The notes beneath the pieces were generated by a model. The model was not told the DNA's origin, made no database searches, and saw only the letters and a program-made list of their open reading frames with translations. Below are positions 1-39,308 of a stretch of 39,308 nucleotides of DNA, piece by piece; the first letter of the stretch is position 1, and every line of letters begins with the position of its first letter. This stretch comes from a virus, in IMG/VR virus record IMGVR_UViG_3300034138_000045, positions 1-39,308 of that record, one strand, 5' to 3'. Position numbers and translations under genes: made by a program.

Positions 1-127
1 CAGCGTGGTGATGACCTCGAACCTGAGCAAACAAGCCTTCGAGGAGCGCTACGGGAGCGACGACCGGCTTACGAATCGCTCGGGTGCGTCGGTGGAGGTG
101 TACGACATCCCCGGCAAGAGCAAGCGC
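1..127. repeat. Terminal direct repeat, left copy (contig closure overlap)
   Basis: These 127 bases are identical to the last 127 bases of the window (39182-39308). The reading frame of the helicase loader continues without a break if the two copies are merged. A 127-base overlap is also the size of a common assembler k-mer, so the simplest reading is a circular assembly graph rather than a real terminal repeat on packaged DNA. Circularity or circular permutation follows; a true short terminal repeat cannot be excluded. Confidence 0.9.
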
Positions 128-30308: not shown

Positions 30309-30683
30309 GAGAGCCTCCTAACTATGTTTCCGTGCCATGTAGGAAGAGACTTGCACGTACACAGTGAGAGGAGGCTAAATCTGGGTCTCGCGCGTGCGAT
30401 CCTGCTAGCTAGCCGAGAAGGCCTCCCGGAGGAGAGCGTGCTCCCGCTGGTCGCACCGGAGAGCTTGGGAAGGGAAGAGTTCGGCTAGCCGGAATCTTCC
30501 TACTCGCACACCTTGGGGAGTCGGGCAGCAGGCCCAGACCCACGACCCTGGGGGGACGATGAGAGCGAGGCCCGCCGCCGTGACTCACGGGCTAGCCTAC
30601 CAGCTCGCCCGCTCCGCAGGCAAGCTTGCCTCAAGATCCACAGCCCGAGCACATGGGTCCCCTTCGCCCCCACCGCCTGATGA

Positions 30684-30712
30684 TTGCAAGGGTGTACCCC
30701 CTGGCAGATAAA
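30684..30712 (+). promoter_or_regulatory. Candidate rightward promoter
   Basis: TTGCAA and GATAAA are separated by 17 bases, four of six matches each to the sigma-70 consensus. The candidate lies just upstream of the AT-rich palindrome, so a regulator bound there could control it. It is the best match seen in the region but remains a prediction. Confidence 0.4.
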
Positions 30713-30761
30713 CTATTGCATATATACGGGGTGTATGCTGGTGGTGATTCGTATATAGGCA

Positions 30762-30787
30762 ATAGATTCGACCGCGGTCGATTCTAT
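30762..30787. repeat. AT-flanked 26-bp near-perfect palindrome
   Basis: A perfect 14-bp core, TCGACCGCGGTCGA at 30768-30781, is extended by five more matched pairs after one mismatch on each side. Outside it, GTATATAG (30751-30758) and CTATATATAC (30784-30793) add imperfect pairing, for a total symmetric element of about 43 bases. Size and symmetry suit a dimeric repressor operator or a replication/transcription structure. Confidence 0.65.
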
Positions 30788-31010
30788 ATATACAACACGT
30801 CAGGTCTGCAGACACTCAGACGGCGGCGTCTAGAGAAATAGCGGTGTGTCTAGTGAATGGGTGGCGCACGGCTCAGGGGTGCGGCTCTCCCAGCTCACGG
30901 TGACACGCGCCCTGTCAACCTCGCCTAGCCGAATTCTACCTCCAGCCATAGAGGTGCCAACCGCTGGTTGCGCCCCCCTAACTAGGCTAGGTTCGGTGAG
31001 CTGCGAGGGT

Positions 31011-31026
31011 GTGTCAGTCTTGACAC
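31011..31026. repeat. GTGTCA/TGACAC inverted repeat
   Basis: GTGTCA and TGACAC face each other across four bases. The right half contains TTGACA (31020-31025), a perfect -35 box, though no convincing -10 follows. A related TGACA-N7-TGTCA pair lies at 30901-30917. They may be operator half-sites of the same regulator. Confidence 0.45.
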
Positions 31027-31166
31027 GGCGCTAGCCGCTCGCTGCCTGCGAGCTCGGCCTGAGCCCTGCTGACATTCGCACTACACAGTGTGCTGAACGA
31101 CAGACGCCAAACAGGGCTTTTGCTATTCTTATCTTGTGGTTGGCGAGATGAGCCAGCCACCCCGGA

Positions 31167-31194
31167 CCTAGCCCGCAGCTAGGCAATGACACCG
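31167..31194 (+). promoter_or_regulatory. Repeated leader element, copy A
   Basis: Stem CCTAGC/GCTAGG with a 5-base loop is followed directly by CAATGACACCG. The start codon of the next gene lies 14 bases further, after a GGAG site. The same design, with a different stem sequence, precedes two further genes. Confidence 0.65.
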
Positions 31195-31208
31195 CTGGAG
31201 CTGACACC

Positions 31209-31427
31209 ATGACCACCACGACGAACACCCTCCCGATTGCCGCCGCCGCCCGCATCTGCGCTACCAAGTGGGCTGTCTCTGGCCACCTGCCGAGCCGACC
31301 GAGCATCGCGGACGTGAGCTGGCTGGAGACCAAGGTCCTTGGGCGCATGGTGACCTGTGCCGAGCTGGCCGAATTCGAAGCGAGCTTCGCTGCGCAGATC
31401 AGCTTCAGCCTCGCGAACGAAGTCTGA
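31209..31427 (+). CDS. Small protein under leader copy A
   Basis: 72 residues, first gene of the early block. A Thr-rich N-terminus (MTTTTNTL) leads into a helix-rich domain with a PSRPSIADVSWLETKVL stretch and an acidic helix near the C-terminus. It is separated from the next gene by its own leader, which suggests independently tuned translation. No family is recognised. Confidence 0.6.
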   Translation: MTTTTNTLPIAAAARICATKWAVSGHLPSRPSIADVSWLETKVLGRMVTCAELAEFEASFAAQISFSLANEV

Positions 31428-31470
31428 GCTGAGACTTCGAGGTAGCCCCTCCCTGCCACGGGGGCTTACT

Positions 31471-31497
31471 CGAGCGCTCAAGCTCGCAATGACACCG
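31471..31497 (+). promoter_or_regulatory. Repeated leader element, copy B
   Basis: Stem CGAGC/GCTCG with loop GCTCAA is followed by CAATGACACCGATA. The start codon is 17 bases after the conserved 11-mer, the same spacing as in copy C, with a TGGAG ribosome site between. Confidence 0.65.
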
Positions 31498-31514
31498 ATA
31501 CTGGAGTTCCCCCC

Positions 31515-31757
31515 ATGACCCTGCCCACGTTCCACGAAGGTATTCAGCTTGGTCCGATCAACCTTGACGGCATGACCGACTCCGAGCTTGCCGAAGCCGC
31601 TCTGCACCCTGCACTGCACCTGGACGTGCGCGCCTACGCCCGCACGCAGATCGAGGCTCGCAAGGCTCGACTTAGCGGTGACATCGTCAAGGCCATGAAA
31701 CTCGAGAACGTGTGCGAGCGCGTCTACGCCACCATCCCCACGAAGCTTCGGTGGTGA
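31515..31757 (+). CDS. Small protein under leader copy B
   Basis: 80 residues. It has a short strand-rich N-terminus (FHEGIQLGPINLDG) followed by helices (DSELAEAALHPALHLDVRAYARTQ). Basic residues in the last third suggest nucleic-acid contact. It overlaps the following gene by 4 bases. No family is recognised. Confidence 0.6.
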   Translation: MTLPTFHEGIQLGPINLDGMTDSELAEAALHPALHLDVRAYARTQIEARKARLSGDIVKAMKLENVCERVYATIPTKLRW

Positions 31758-32014
31758 ACGACATGGGCAAGCAATACGGCGTGCAACCGGCCGGGTTCGA
31801 GGACGTGTGCAACGCGCTGCACGATGCCAAGGCAGCGGCTCGGGACGTCCTGAAGACCCTCAGCGAAGTCGACGCGGCGCTCGGGTCCGATGCGTTCGGC
31901 GACATGCTGGTCAACCTGCAGGCCGCGCTTGCGGAGCTTGAGTACGCACGCGAGTGCACGGAGAAGTGCGTGGCTCCCATCGACGCCTGGCACCTGTCAC
32001 AGAGCGATTACTGA
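31754..32014 (+). CDS. Small helical protein, unknown
   Basis: 86 residues from a GTG overlapping the upstream stop; an ATG three codons later is an alternative. It is nearly all helix, acidic and Ala-rich (FEDVCNALHDAKAAARDVLKTL), with a CTEKCVAPIDAW C-terminal part. No family is recognised. Confidence 0.6.
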   Translation: MNDMGKQYGVQPAGFEDVCNALHDAKAAARDVLKTLSEVDAALGSDAFGDMLVNLQAALAELEYARECTEKCVAPIDAWHLSQSDY

Positions 32015-32056
32015 CCACTGCCCTCCCGATGCTTCTCACCCTGTGAGCGGCTGAAT

Positions 32057-32082
32057 CGAGCGCTGTGCTCGCAATGACACCG
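32057..32082 (+). promoter_or_regulatory. Repeated leader element, copy C
   Basis: Stem CGAGC/GCTCG with a GCTGT loop is followed by CAATGACACCGATA, then 17 bases to the start of the next gene. It matches copy B in stem, conserved 11-mer and spacing, while the loop differs. Confidence 0.65.
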
Positions 32083-32099
32083 ATATTGAGGCTGTACCC

Positions 32100-32246
32100 A
32101 TGGATGACTCCGATTCGATTCTCGAGTCCCGCGAGCTCGCCTATCACGAGTGGCGAGAAGGCATCGACGACCAACTCCTAGCCGACCAACGGGAAGCTGA
32201 CTGGCAGGCGTTCCAGCAGGCGTGCGACGCCGATTGGAGGCTCTGA
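32100..32246 (+). CDS. Very small acidic protein under leader copy C
   Basis: 48 residues, below common length cut-offs. It is strongly acidic and rich in Asp, Glu and Trp (SILESRELAYHEWREGIDDQ). Its stop shares a base with the start of the membrane protein gene. DNA-mimic or inhibitor proteins of phages often have this composition, but nothing specific is recognised. Confidence 0.55.
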   Translation: MDDSDSILESRELAYHEWREGIDDQLLADQREADWQAFQQACDADWRL

Positions 32247-32563
32247 TGTTCTGGTTGTTCGCTCTGCTGGTTGCCGCCCTCGTTTTCTCTGGAGCATTCG
32301 TCCCCATGTTGCAGCTGTTGTTCACCCTGATTCTCTGGACCGTCGCCGGTTGCCCGGACCCGAACGCGCATCCGCCCAAGGCCGCGCCTGCTGCCCAGGA
32401 GCAGACTGTCGAACAGTGGCTGGAGGATGGTGGCGAGCGCGCGGGCAAGGCGGCTGCCGAGGCTACGCGCGCCGCGAAGAAGGCTGTGCGTAGTGGTAGG
32501 CGTAAGCTTCAGGAGGCTGCTCGTAAGGCTGCCGAGGAGACGCACGAGAATGAGCCCGAGTGA
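32246..32563 (+). CDS. Membrane protein with two N-terminal helices and a basic tail
   Basis: 105 residues. Residues 2-17 and 20-36 are hydrophobic helices (FWLFALLVAALVFSGAF, then MLQLLFTLILWTVAG). The remaining 65 residues are a charged Ala/Lys/Glu/Arg helix. Early expression and a membrane location suggest superinfection exclusion or envelope remodelling, but this is inference. Confidence 0.6.
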   Translation: MFWLFALLVAALVFSGAFVPMLQLLFTLILWTVAGCPDPNAHPPKAAPAAQEQTVEQWLEDGGERAGKAAAEATRAAKKAVRSGRRKLQEAARKAAEETHENEPE

Positions 32564-32786
32564 CTTCGTGCCGCGCGAGTACGTGTCTCCTGACGGCTCT
32601 ATGCGGGTCTACCGAGATGGCGTGCTCTGGTATGCCGACGTGCTCGAGGCTGGCCGATGGAAGCCGGTAGCTCGCCACCACCTCTCGAGCGAGGTTGCGA
32701 TGATCGCGTGCCTCGCGTCGCTTGACCTGCTCACGTTCGACGAACATGAGCCCGATTCAACCCCTGACTTGGACTGGTGGGAGTGA
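32550..32786 (+). CDS. Small protein, unknown
   Basis: 78 residues, overlapping the membrane protein gene by 14 bases. It is a compact strand-rich domain (VSPDGSMRVYRDGVLWYADVL) with an acidic C-terminus (DEHEPDSTPDLDWWE). No family is recognised. Confidence 0.6.
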   Translation: MSPSDFVPREYVSPDGSMRVYRDGVLWYADVLEAGRWKPVARHHLSSEVAMIACLASLDLLTFDEHEPDSTPDLDWWE

Positions 32787-32789
32787 CAG

Positions 32790-33299
32790 ATGACTTGCAA
32801 GCATGAGAGCACGACGGACGGGCAGATCTACGGCTACAACGGCTCCGTCGCGCACCACCCATTCACTTACGAGAACCCCAGGGCTCACGGCGGCGTGCGG
32901 TACACCGAGACGTGCGACGCATGCGGCGCCAAGCGCCTCGTGAACAGCAACGGCCTGCACTACGAGTACGGCACTTGGGGGCCATCCCTTGCCGAACGCG
33001 AGCGCGAGGAACGCGAGAGGCAGCGCCAGCAGGAGATCGCGGACTTCGAGGCTGCAGCCGATCGCGTCAAGGCGCTCCAGCGCGGCGCAGTCTCCTACGC
33101 GAGCGACGACGGCCGCCGCTGGTACGTAGCCGAGGTCGACAAGGAAGGCGTCGTCATTCGCACCGAGCCCGAGCCGCGCCACGTGCGCGTCACTTGGGAA
33201 TACCTCGACCTGGCAGCCGACCAGCCCGAGCCCTTGCTACGCACCGCCTACTCCGCAATCCGCGCCGATGCGCGCCTGCTGCGCCGCTTCAAGCCGTGA
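32790..33299 (+). CDS. Protein with zinc-knuckle N-terminus, unknown
   Basis: 169 residues. Cys3, His5 and a later CDACGA motif could form a zinc site in the first 50 residues. A strongly charged helix (AEREREERERQRQQEIADF) leads to a strand-rich C-terminal domain with RWYVAEVDKEGVVIRTEP. No family is recognised. Confidence 0.6.
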   Translation: MTCKHESTTDGQIYGYNGSVAHHPFTYENPRAHGGVRYTETCDACGAKRLVNSNGLHYEYGTWGPSLAEREREERERQRQQEIADFEAAADRVKALQRGAVSYASDDGRRWYVAEVDKEGVVIRTEPEPRHVRVTWEYLDLAADQPEPLLRTAYSAIRADARLLRRFKP

Positions 33300-33623: not shown

Positions 33624-33707
33624 ATTCGCGACCTGCTCGAGCCCATGAGACACTTCTCAGGGGCTCTGTGGAGGACACGAGTACGTCTCTCCAGAAGGAC
33701 ACCGTTT

Positions 33708-34517
33708 ATGACCAGTGCCATCACCAAGACCGACATGAGTGGGCTCGAGCAGGTTCTCATCAGCGGAGACCTGAGCAGTCTCTCGCCCGACCAGGCCGTG
33801 CAGTACTACGCGCGTGTTTGCGCGAGCGTCGGGCTGAACCCACTCACGCAGCCGTTCGAGTACCTCAAGCTCAACGGCAAGATGGTGCTGTACGCGCGCC
33901 GCGCCGCTGCCGACCAGCTCCGGCAGATTCACAACGTGTCCATCACCATCGTCTCGCGCGAGAAGGTCGATGGCTGCTACGTCGTCACCGCGCGCGCCAC
34001 GCTGCCGTCAGGCCGCTGCGATGAGTCGGTGGGCGCGGTGCCCATCGAAGGGCTCAAAGGCGAGACGCTAGCCAATGCGGTCATGAAGACCGAGACCAAG
34101 GCCAAGCGCCGCGTGACGCTCGCGATCTGCGGTCTTGCCCTGCTCGACGAGTCCGAGCTCGAAGGCGTGCACGGCGCGCGCTCGGTGAACATGGCCGACG
34201 CCTTCCCCGTCGCTCGCTTGCCAGCTACCCAGGAGCGCGACACCAAGCCCGACAATGTGGTGCCCATCCGCGCCGAGGAGCCGACGACGGTGCTCGACGG
34301 GGACGAGAAGCGAACCGTGTACGAGATGTTCGCCGGCAAGCTTCGGCAGCGCCAGACGGCCGAGGAGCTGGTCGCGTGGCTCAAGCTGTTCATGGCGACC
34401 GAGTACCCGCCCGAGGTGCGTGCGGAGCTTCAGAACCTGTTCAGGCGCCACGCGCGGGCTCTGCGGCTGGACCCCAACATGCTCGTGCTTCAGGCGCAGA
34501 AGGGCGGTTCCAAGTGA
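33708..34517 (+). CDS. Single-strand annealing protein, RecT-like
   Basis: 269 residues. The N-terminal 160 residues match a phage annealing-protein pattern: YYARVCASVGLNPLTQPFEY near 30-49, LYARRAAADQLRQIHNVSI near 60-80, and GETLANAVMKTETKAKRRVT near 118-137. The C-terminal third is linker plus a helical domain. Such proteins anneal complementary single strands during recombination and phage genome circularisation. A RecE-like exonuclease follows after one intervening gene, the usual partner. The precise superfamily is not certain. Confidence 0.7.
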   Translation: MTSAITKTDMSGLEQVLISGDLSSLSPDQAVQYYARVCASVGLNPLTQPFEYLKLNGKMVLYARRAAADQLRQIHNVSITIVSREKVDGCYVVTARATLPSGRCDESVGAVPIEGLKGETLANAVMKTETKAKRRVTLAICGLALLDESELEGVHGARSVNMADAFPVARLPATQERDTKPDNVVPIRAEEPTTVLDGDEKRTVYEMFAGKLRQRQTAEELVAWLKLFMATEYPPEVRAELQNLFRRHARALRLDPNMLVLQAQKGGSK

Positions 34518-35065: not shown

Positions 35066-35892
35066 TCGTCAGAGATTTTCCGATTGCCGATTACCACGCC
35101 GATCGCGAGTACACCTCGCACTCCAAGATCCGCGACTTCGTCGAGAAGGGGCCGCGCTTCTACTTCGAGCGCCACATCGCGCACACCATCGAGCGCGAGG
35201 AGACGCAGCCGTTCTGCTTTGGCAACGCGTGCGAGTACCTCGTGCAGCAGGGCGGCGAAGCGTTCTCTCGGAAGTACGCCGTCAAGACGCTGCCCGGCAA
35301 CACCAAGGGCGGCAAGCAGTGGGCAGCGGCCCAGGACGCAGCCGGCAAGACCATTATCTCGCAGGCCGACTACGACGCGATGCTGCACATGGTGGAGGCG
35401 CTGCAGACCGACTGCCAGAAGGGCATGGACCTCATCGAGCACGCCGAGCAGCAGGTGACGCTCCGCGGCGAGCTGCACGGCGTGAAGGTGCAAGCGCGGC
35501 CCGACTGGGTGAACCTCGACGAGTACGCCACCTACTCGGTCGACCACAAGACCACCAAGAACATGCGCGACCTGTTGGTCGACCTCGACACCTGCGGCGC
35601 GTCCATCTGGAAGCTCGGCTATCACAGCCAGGCGGCGCTCGTACGCGAGCTGCTTCGGCAGAACGGCTACCCGCACGTCAGCTGCTATCTGCTCGTTGCC
35701 GAGAAGGTGCAGCCCTATCGCGTCGAGTGCATCGACATCGAGCACCTGTTAGACGCTGGCGATGCGTGGCTCGCGCGCTTTCTGCCGAAGCTCGCGGAGT
35801 GCCAGCAGAGCAACACGTGGCCGCGCTCGAGCGGAGGGATCGTCAAGATCCAAAAGCCCAAGTGGATGGACGAGATTCCGACGCACACCTGA
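35062..35892 (+). CDS. RecE-like PD-(D/E)XK exonuclease
   Basis: 276 residues, similar to the C-terminal nuclease domain of RecE (exonuclease VIII type, DUF3799 pattern). Visible motifs: SHSKIRDFVEKGPRFYFE near 19-36, FGNACEYLV near 53-61, RPDW at 146-149, and the D-x-K pair at D161/K163 in VDHKTT. The segment GYHSQAALVRELL is the Q-helix of the family. The position usually held by a conserved His (FGxAxH) is Glu58 here. With the annealing protein it would form a two-component recombination system. Confidence 0.8.
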   Translation: MIVRDFPIADYHADREYTSHSKIRDFVEKGPRFYFERHIAHTIEREETQPFCFGNACEYLVQQGGEAFSRKYAVKTLPGNTKGGKQWAAAQDAAGKTIISQADYDAMLHMVEALQTDCQKGMDLIEHAEQQVTLRGELHGVKVQARPDWVNLDEYATYSVDHKTTKNMRDLLVDLDTCGASIWKLGYHSQAALVRELLRQNGYPHVSCYLLVAEKVQPYRVECIDIEHLLDAGDAWLARFLPKLAECQQSNTWPRSSGGIVKIQKPKWMDEIPTHT

Positions 35893-35905
35893 AAGGACAC
35901 CGATC

Positions 35906-36478
35906 ATGGCGAATCTGAAACTCAACGTGTTGCACGGACGCCCCTATCAAGCGGACGGCCAAGAGAAAATGTCGTGGACCATCGTGGGCGTCGCCTGGCA
36001 GAACGAGAAGGGCATCGACGCGAAAATCTGGTCCACGCCCGTGCACGTCGAAGCCGATGGCTGCATTCGCCTCGTGCTTCGCGAGCCGATGGTCGAAGGG
36101 CAGCCTCCACGCCCCGCGCAGCCGAGTGGACCGCAGACGCCTGGTCTGCAGCTCGTGATGCTGCACCCGCGCTCTTTCCAGGGACGCGACGGCTCGCAGG
36201 GAACGAGCTGGAACGAGGTCGGCATCGCGTGGATGAACGACCGCGGGGTGGACGCGAAGCTGCACTACATCCCGGTGGGGCCGCATCAGGATGGCGCGTT
36301 TCGGATTCTGTTCCGTGAGCCCAACGAGCAGGACCGGCAGCGCCGCGCTCCACAGCAGCAGGCAGTGCGTCCGCAGCATCGCGACCAGCTTAGCCGGATG
36401 CAGGCGGGCCAGCCGCGCGTGGACCCTGGCCCGCAGCCGCCAACGTACGCCGAGCCCGGCGACGACTTGCCGTTCTGA
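35906..36478 (+). CDS. SSB-like protein with tandem duplicated domain
   Basis: 190 residues. Two related domains are adjacent, residues 4-61 and 81-139: each has an LHxRxxQ opening, a W-x-x-VG-(V/I)-AW-x-N core with G-(I/V)-DAK, and an ending R-(L/I)-x-x-REP. A Gln/Pro/Arg-rich linker follows, and the extreme C-terminus is DDLPF. An acidic tip ending in Pro-Phe is the hallmark of bacterial SSB tails that recruit replication and repair proteins. Location after the recombination pair supports single-strand DNA binding. The domain itself is not a recognised OB fold. Confidence 0.65.
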   Translation: MANLKLNVLHGRPYQADGQEKMSWTIVGVAWQNEKGIDAKIWSTPVHVEADGCIRLVLREPMVEGQPPRPAQPSGPQTPGLQLVMLHPRSFQGRDGSQGTSWNEVGIAWMNDRGVDAKLHYIPVGPHQDGAFRILFREPNEQDRQRRAPQQQAVRPQHRDQLSRMQAGQPRVDPGPQPPTYAEPGDDLPF

Positions 36479-38659: not shown

Positions 38660-39308
38660 CAAGCCCGACGCGAAGCCGAACCCGTTCCAGCTCATCGCGC
38701 AGAAAGCCATCGCAGACCTCACGCCCGAACAGGGCGCCGACGCCGCGATGCGTGACGCGCGCCGCGCTGCCCAAGAGCACCAGGAGCGCCAGAGCGCCTG
38801 GCTCGATGCGGCGCTTGCGACGGCGCGGCTGCGCGGGGTGCGGTTCATCATGGAAAACCCCGACGCGGACAGCGTCGCGCTGCGGTACATCCGCGGCTGG
38901 TTCACCGCGCCGAAGGGGCCGCATATCCTGCTGCGCGGCCCAACCGGCACCGGCAAGACCGTGGCCGCTGCGTGGCTGGTCCGGCACTGCACCGAGCCGA
39001 ACGAAGCGCGCGGCAGCGTCGCGTGGCTCTACCCCGACGACGTGTGCAGCGCCGTGCTGCACGAGCGCTGGGACGAGAAAGCCCCGAAGCTCGCGCGCTA
39101 CGTCGTGGTCGACGAGGTCGGCACCGAGACGCGACCCGAGTTCACCAAGGCGCTCGCGCGGCTGCTCGACCGCGACTCGTGCAGCGTGGTGATGACCTCG
39201 AACCTGAGCAAACAAGCCTTCGAGGAGCGCTACGGGAGCGACGACCGGCTTACGAATCGCTCGGGTGCGTCGGTGGAGGTGTACGACATCCCCGGCAAGA
39301 GCAAGCGC
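38646..39308 (+). CDS. DnaC/IstB-like AAA+ helicase loader (5' part; continues at the window start)
   Basis: AAA+ ATPase that probably loads the host replicative helicase at the phage origin. Joined to the window start, the protein is 227 residues. Walker A GPTGTGKT is at residues 98-105, Walker B VVVDEVG near 153-159, a sensor-I stretch VVMTSN at 181-186, and an arginine-rich ERYGSDDRL segment at 194-202. The N-terminal 60 residues are helical and carry no zinc-binding cysteines, unlike some DnaC proteins. The GTG start overlaps the end of the initiator gene by 14 bases, so the two are probably translationally coupled, matching the lambda O-P order of initiator followed by loader. Family assignment from motifs is solid; the exact helicase partner is inference. 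Confidence 0.85.
   Translation, partial: MSARDKPDAKPNPFQLIAQKAIADLTPEQGADAAMRDARRAAQEHQERQSAWLDAALATARLRGVRFIMENPDADSVALRYIRGWFTAPKGPHILLRGPTGTGKTVAAAWLVRHCTEPNEARGSVAWLYPDDVCSAVLHERWDEKAPKLARYVVVDEVGTETRPEFTKALARLLDRDSCSVVMTSNLSKQAFEERYGSDDRLTNRSGASVEVYDIPGKSKR
39182..39308. repeat. Terminal direct repeat, right copy (contig closure overlap)
   Basis: Exact copy of the first 127 bases of the window. It lies inside the 3' part of the helicase-loader gene, a coding position that would be unusual for a natural terminal repeat and is expected for an assembly overlap. Removing one copy gives a unit of 39,181 bases. Confidence 0.9.

What the first reader, a model, noticed from the sequence alone, without database searches (positions are those of the whole stretch)
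31167..32082. Three-copy 5' leader with covarying stem and invariant 11-mer
Three early genes are preceded by a short hairpin followed immediately by CAATGACACCG and then 14, 17 and 17 bases to the start codon. In copy A the stem is CCTAGC/GCTAGG; in copies B and C it is CGAGC/GCTCG, with three different loops. Pairing is kept while sequence changes, which points to a structured RNA or a looped protein site, not simple duplication. It could be a shared translational operator or a processing site that tunes these small early genes together.
Basis: seen in the sequence. Interest (0 to 1): 0.8.

Follow-up and report, generated by a model that had tools for sequence, protein, structure and literature searches.

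The report
Repeated start-site element in phage leaders
In one otherwise unrelated phage genome, each of the first three independent gene starts of the early operon carries the same 12-letter sequence just after a small inverted repeat, probably a shared control site for starting protein synthesis, similar in layout to start-associated elements known from other phages but with a different sequence and found nowhere else so far.

Summary
Three copies of a 12-mer, GCAATGACACCG, lie 14, 17 and 17 nt before genes g1, g2 and g4. Each directly follows an inverted repeat: CCTAGC/GCTAGG, CGAGC/GCTCG, CGAGC/GCTCG. It is the only start-associated 11-mer present three or more times in the genome, and a ≥5-bp stem ending exactly there is expected at about 1.3% of positions. 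"Covarying stem" is too strong. B and C are near-duplicates (81% over 36 nt) with identical stems, so the evidence is one compensatory pair (T-A to G-C), plus one extra pair in A. As RNA the stems are ordinary, and in B the stem is predicted not to form in longer transcripts. No homologous copy turned up: the pattern hits examined look like chance, and 0 of 67 start-placed viral copies have a ≥5-bp stem. The early genes have no homologs found, so covariation cannot be tested. Best reading: a start-associated cis element governing translation initiation of uncoupled early starts, analogous to but not a member of SAS/ESAS in cluster K mycobacteriophages. Whether a regulator exists, or this is a reused ribosome-binding cassette or DNA operator, is open.

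The parts
31167..31183 (+). copy A inverted repeat: CCTAGC (31167-31172), loop CCGCA, GCTAGG (31178-31183)
   Evidence: sequence; perfect stem of >=6 bp ending at an exact position is 0.35% of the genome
31184..31194 (+). copy A tag CAATGACACCG (12-mer with the preceding G)
31197..31200 (+). GGAG Shine-Dalgarno of g1, 8 nt before ATG 31209
   Evidence: sequence
31209..31427 (+). g1, 72 aa, no homolog found
31471..31486 (+). copy B inverted repeat: CGAGC, loop GCTCAA, GCTCG
   Evidence: sequence
31487..31497 (+). copy B tag CAATGACACCG
31503..31506 (+). GGAG Shine-Dalgarno of g2, 8 nt before ATG 31515
   Evidence: sequence
31515..31757 (+). g2, 80 aa, followed by g3 (31763-32014) without a gap large enough for a leader
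   Evidence: no relative found
32057..32071 (+). copy C inverted repeat: CGAGC, loop GCTGT, GCTCG
   Evidence: sequence
32072..32082 (+). copy C tag CAATGACACCG
32088..32091 (+). GAGG Shine-Dalgarno of g4, 8 nt before ATG 32100
   Evidence: sequence
32100..32246 (+). g4, 48 aa, overlapping or abutting g5-g7 downstream
31136..31160 (+). second, stronger hairpin 6 nt upstream of copy A's stem (GTGGTTGGC/GCCAGCCAC); B has one at 31444-31466 and C a weaker one at 32031-32051
   Evidence: A and B in the top 3-4% of 30-nt segments, C not unusual; joint p about 0.03, so only suggestive
33694..33704 (+). possible weaker relative of the tag, GAAGGACACCG, 3 nt before ATG of g9 (33708)
   Evidence: post hoc, weak
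35892..35902 (+). possible weaker relative of the tag, AAAGGACACCG, 3 nt before ATG of g12 (35906)
   Evidence: post hoc, weak

Best explanation
It is a start-associated cis element that acts in the early mRNA at the level of translation initiation. The early operon is presumably transcribed rightward from the AT-richer stretch just before copy A (inferred). Each uncoupled translation start in its first 1.1 kb (g1, g2-g3, g4-g7) carries the same cassette: short inverted repeat, 12-nt tag GCAAUGACACCG, then an SD 2-5 nt later, then exactly 8 nt to AUG (shown). The invariant, asymmetric tag is the recognised part; the stem positions it and keeps it single-stranded (inferred). The reader of the tag is either the 30S subunit, as a standby or enhancer site, or a phage or host RNA-binding factor that sets these starts together (inferred; not distinguished here).
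For: 12 of 12 tag positions are identical in three copies although the leaders upstream of A's stem do not align with those of B and C. All are on the coding strand, with SD-ATG spacing 8/8/8 and tag-ATG spacing 14/17/17. The tag occurs nowhere else in a genome closed by a 127-bp end repeat, and no other start-associated 11-mer reaches three copies. Two independent stems sit at the same position. Loop length varies (5, 6, 5) with one compensated pair, which suits RNA better than a rigid DNA dimer site. Copies occur only at starts not coupled to an upstream gene in this part of the operon. No sigma-70-like + strand promoter was found in 30500-32700, so B and C probably lie inside a transcript. 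GACACCG occurs seven times in the genome, five of them just before early starts.
Against: No relative carries it, so conservation across genomes is untested. RNA stability is ordinary (z from -0.94 to +0.29 for the short leaders). B's stem is predicted at about 0.02 probability once 40 nt of upstream RNA is included, and C's varies between 0.04 and 0.6. No RNA-binding regulator was identified. Larger gaps before g9 and g15 lack the full cassette. Transcription start sites are unknown.
Confidence: 0.42

Rival explanations
1. A copied ribosome-binding cassette without a dedicated regulator: a start region was duplicated within the early operon (C from B, and A related to them) and kept because it is an efficient RBS with an insulating hairpin.
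For: B and C share 81% over 36 nt up to and including the ATG and 88% over the 16 nt before. A and B share CTGGAG and ATGACC around the start. Early phage genes often need strong RBSs (general knowledge).
Against: The tag, which lies upstream of the SD and has no notable 16S complementarity (6 Watson-Crick bases, equal to shuffles, against E. coli 16S), is the best conserved part, rather than the SD (GGAG/GGAG/GAGG). The A stem differs but remains paired.
Confidence: 0.25
2. A DNA-level site: the inverted repeat plus the directional tag bind a transcription factor (operator or promoter-associated site), as proposed for ESAS elements.
For: The ESAS elements of Adephagia contain putative SigA-like promoters plus an inverted repeat (PMC11373665). 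Copy A lies in a control region with a cluster of CTAGCC sites, 12 of the genome's 31 CTAG tetramers lying in 30405-31179. The B and C RNA stems are weak in context.
Against: Spacing between the half-repeats varies (5, 6, 5). B and C lack CTAG. No + strand promoter-like site was found. The tag lies 15-27 nt before ATG and upstream of an SD, so a promoter core there would give a transcript starting at or after the SD.
Confidence: 0.18
3. A leader-peptide element: the ATG inside the tag opens a short ORF (MTP...) whose translation couples to the gene.
For: The ATG in the tag has the same frame relation to the gene start in all three (23, 26, 26 nt), and in A and B its TGA overlaps the gene ATG (MTPLELTP*, MTPILEFPP*). 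A and B differ by an in-frame 3-nt ATA.
Against: There is no SD before that ATG, which abuts the stem. In C the frame runs on for 35 codons past the start. The shared frame has a chance of 1 in 9.
Confidence: 0.08
4. An RNA-processing, termination or antitermination signal in the early transcript (RNase site, put-like or nut-like element).
For: Hairpins sit between early genes. A and B have a second strong hairpin 4-6 nt upstream.
Against: Stems of 5-6 bp are short for RNase III (general knowledge). There is no U-tract, no Rfam match up to E=1, the loops are not conserved, and the fixed distance to the start codon is unexplained.
Confidence: 0.07

Closest known systems
[quoted passage not shown]
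   Same: A short, asymmetric, invariant sequence just upstream of start codons of several non-structural genes, in one orientation, mainly at genes with large upstream gaps; a subset has an inverted repeat with variable spacer directly upstream.
   Different: SAS is GGGATAGGAGCCC in 11-19 copies, contains the SD itself and lies 3-7 nt from the start; ESAS repeats are 17 bp, and their variation does not support RNA pairing. Here the tag is GCAATGACACCG in 3 copies, lies upstream of a separate SD, 14-17 nt from the start, and the repeats are 5-6 bp with one compensated pair.
SAS/ESAS-like motifs of Microbacterium cluster EF phages (GGGAAAGGACCCC) and the repeated start-upstream motifs of clusters EC and EG (PMC7302621)
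   Same: Repeated motifs at or upstream of start codons (EC: 22-30 bp upstream; EG: two short inverted motifs), function unknown.
   Different: Different sequences and copy numbers (10-12); no relationship between the phages was detected.
Lambdoid nut (boxA/boxB) and HK022 put elements (from memory)
   Same: Short hairpins with conserved single-stranded flanks in early transcripts.
   Different: Not start-codon-associated; nut loops are conserved, here they are not; no boxA-like sequence; no Rfam match.

Membership tests
SAS (cluster K start-associated sequence) | 13-bp GGGATAGGAGCCC, up to two mismatches | tested here: not met
   The invariant block is GCAATGACACCG (consensus from PMC3203893).
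SAS (cluster K start-associated sequence) | motif covers the ribosome-binding site, 3-7 nt from the start | tested here: not met
   The tag ends 14-17 nt before ATG, with a separate SD between.
SAS (cluster K start-associated sequence) | asymmetric, one orientation, immediately upstream of starts of several non-structural genes | tested here: met
   3 of 3 copies on +, before g1, g2 and g4.
ESAS | 17-bp imperfect inverted repeats with variable spacer directly upstream of the SAS | tested here: not met
   The repeats are 5-6 bp, spacer 5-6 nt; location is analogous only.
Structured cis-regulatory RNA | covariation across independent homologs | tested here: inconclusive
   One compensated pair between A and B/C; no homologs found.
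Structured cis-regulatory RNA | stability beyond shuffled sequence and formation in context | tested here: not met
   z from -0.94 to +0.29 for the short leaders; B probability about 0.02 in longer context.
Structured cis-regulatory RNA | match to a described RNA family | tested here: not met
   No Rfam match up to E=1 in 30500-33000.
Promoter of a phage-encoded single-subunit or N4-type virion RNA polymerase | the phage encodes such a polymerase | tested here: inconclusive
   The record is closed by a 127-bp repeat and its largest ORF is 819 aa, too short for an N4-type vRNAP of about 3,500 aa (size from memory); the PF00940 search gave nothing, but its control did not ring either.

The most novel reading that the evidence does not exclude
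The stem plus GCAAUGACACCG tag is an RNA operator for an undescribed phage- or host-encoded factor that sets translation of the first three early units together, a new class of start-associated control element convergent with SAS/ESAS.
Probability: 0.2. Interest if true: 0.55.

Novelty: new variant of a known kind. Interest (0 to 1): 0.3.

Why it matters
Start-associated repeated elements in phages have been described since 2011, but their role in gene expression is still reported as unresolved (PMC3203893, PMC12699233). An unrelated phage with the same layout but a different sequence, and a tag separated from its SD, would suggest convergent evolution of such control. It is also a compact three-copy system in which tag, stem and SD can be mutated separately.

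Tried and rejected
Exact stem-arm+tag pattern in viral contigs: 8 hits, none with a similar hairpin before a start. Tag+SD+ATG patterns in viral contigs and genome contigs: all hits examined look like chance. The Streptomyces group reads as the coding end of an upstream gene (by hand), and the 8-bp stem in a Dactylosporangium contig lies at the coding end of a gene; 0 of 67 viral tags have a >=5-bp stem. Relatives through terminase (4, about 35% identity), the 33714 gene (9), the 12084 protein (0), g2 (0) and the 35762 gene (0): none shares the early genes or the tag. Tag pairing with 16S rRNA: no better than shuffles, with E. coli 16S as proxy because the host is unknown. In-frame N-terminal extension through the tag (NDTD/NDTA): no usable start codon. 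SD-sequestering switch using the 3' arm: seen for A and B in some contexts, not for C. Conserved second upstream hairpin: A and B unusual, C not, joint p about 0.03. SD/tag relation to g9 and g12 leaders (AAGGACACCG) is post hoc, roughly p 0.01 by hand estimate. The sequence-only model R1 finds just the three copies it was built from.

Full report
OBSERVATION. The finding is accurate at base level. CAATGACACCG occurs exactly three times, at 31184, 31487 and 32072, all on +. With the preceding G the shared block is 12 nt. Directly before it stand CCTAGC-CCGCA-GCTAGG (A), CGAGC-GCTCAA-GCTCG (B) and CGAGC-GCTGT-GCTCG (C); after it come 14, 17 and 17 nt to the ATG of g1, g2 and g4. The record ends in a 127-bp exact direct repeat, so it looks like a closed genome of about 39,181 bp, and these are all its copies.

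CHANCE. Many 11-mers recur in this GC-rich genome, but in 100 simulated genomes per Markov order (1-4) only 2 to 10 had any 11-mer three times within 1 kb. In the real genome the tag is the only one besides a GA run, and the only 11-mer found three or more times in the 45 nt before SD-bearing starts; the same scan on 13 loci of distant relatives found essentially nothing comparable. Perfect stems (loop 3-8) ending exactly at a given base occur at 1.3% (at least 5 bp) and 0.35% (at least 6 bp) of positions. Taking A and B as independent, the joint chance is about 4e-5, or a few e-4 with freedom of offset.

COVARIATION CLAIM. Read outward from the loop, A and B/C share C-G, G-C and A-T, then have T-A in A against G-C in B/C, then C-G in both; A has one further C-G. 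So there is one compensated pair and one extra pair. B and C have identical stems and are 81% identical over 36 nt through the ATG, and 88% over the preceding 16 nt, so they are best seen as a duplication.

ANATOMY. The SD (GGAG, GGAG, GAGG) lies exactly 8 nt before each ATG. The tag ends 2 nt (A) or 5 nt (B, C) before the SD. In the first 1.1 kb of the early operon the copies head g1, g2(-g3) and g4(-g5-g6-g7), the starts that follow a real gap, while the other genes abut or overlap. Later gaps before g9 and g15 lack the cassette. GACACCG occurs seven times in the genome: the three tags, two in AAGGACACCG 3 nt before the ATGs of g9 and g12, and two elsewhere, apparently in coding sequence. 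This hints at a looser family, but it was noticed after the fact.

STRUCTURE. Folding the short leaders gives z-scores of -0.38, -0.94 and +0.29; the longer leaders give -1.97, -1.71 and +0.44. With 40 nt or more of upstream RNA the B hairpin falls to about 0.02 probability because its arms join a larger stem; C varies from 0.04 to 0.6; A stays at 0.58 or more. An RNA hairpin is therefore plausible for A but not robust for B and C without help from translation, kinetics or a protein. A and B have a stronger second hairpin 4-6 nt upstream, C only a weak one; jointly p is about 0.03.

RELATIVES. The phage collection has no DNA match to the two stretches tried. Terminase finds four distant relatives and the gene at 33714 finds nine, but none carries the early genes or the tag. 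g2 and the 12084 protein find nothing. Pattern scans for stem-arm+tag and for tag+SD+ATG in viral contigs and genome contigs gave chance-like hits: 0 of 67 viral tags with a >=5-bp stem, and no locus of that set with two tags. Absence of close relatives means that the key prediction, conservation with covariation, remains untested. The tools also warn that records very near the window's own genome may be left out.

MECHANISM. The conserved, directional tag upstream of a fixed SD-ATG unit, at uncoupled starts only, points to translation initiation in the mRNA (about 0.42). A copied RBS cassette without a regulator (0.25) explains B and C well but not why the tag, rather than the SD, is invariant. 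A DNA site (0.18) is supported by the ESAS precedent (PMC11373665) and by the CTAGCC cluster around A, but is weakened by variable half-site spacing and by the position relative to the SD. A leader ORF starting in the tag keeps frame in all three but has no SD and overruns in C (0.08).

COMPARISON. The nearest known kind is SAS/ESAS of cluster K mycobacteriophages (PMC3203893), with a look-alike in Microbacterium cluster EF (PMC7302621). The layout is shared; the sequence, position relative to the SD and length of repeats are not, so this is not a member. In cluster K the inverted repeats do not support RNA pairing (PMC3203893); here one compensated pair exists. The function of SAS/ESAS itself is still reported as unproven (PMC12699233).

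VERDICT. The element is real and start-associated, with modest evidence for pairing and no evidence yet for a regulator or a family. It is a new variant of a known kind, of modest interest until relatives or an assay are available.

Noticed in passing
window 1-127 and 39182-39308: Exact 127-bp terminal direct repeat: the record is most likely a circularly closed assembly, with a DnaC-like ATPase gene running across the junction.
   Followed up: yes
window 30405-31179: CTAG is rare in the genome (31 copies) but 12 copies lie in this 775-bp non-coding control region, many as CTAGCC/GGCTAG: a possible operator cluster.
   Followed up: partly
window 30762-30787: Near-perfect palindrome ATAGATTCGACCG/CGGTCGATTCTAT in AT-rich flanks with TATATA repeats: possible operator or origin feature.
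   Followed up: no
window 30880-31060: 180-nt stretch of nested inverted repeats that folds better than shuffles on both strands (z -2.45 each).
   Followed up: no
window 33694-33710 and 35892-35908: g9 and g12 share AAGGACACCG-N3-ATG, an SD plus CACCG that resembles the tag.
   Followed up: partly
L025 and L061: Two AT-rich viral contigs share a similar leader AATGTCAARGCAATGACACCGAAG...GGAG...ATG without a hairpin, perhaps the end of an upstream gene.
   Followed up: no
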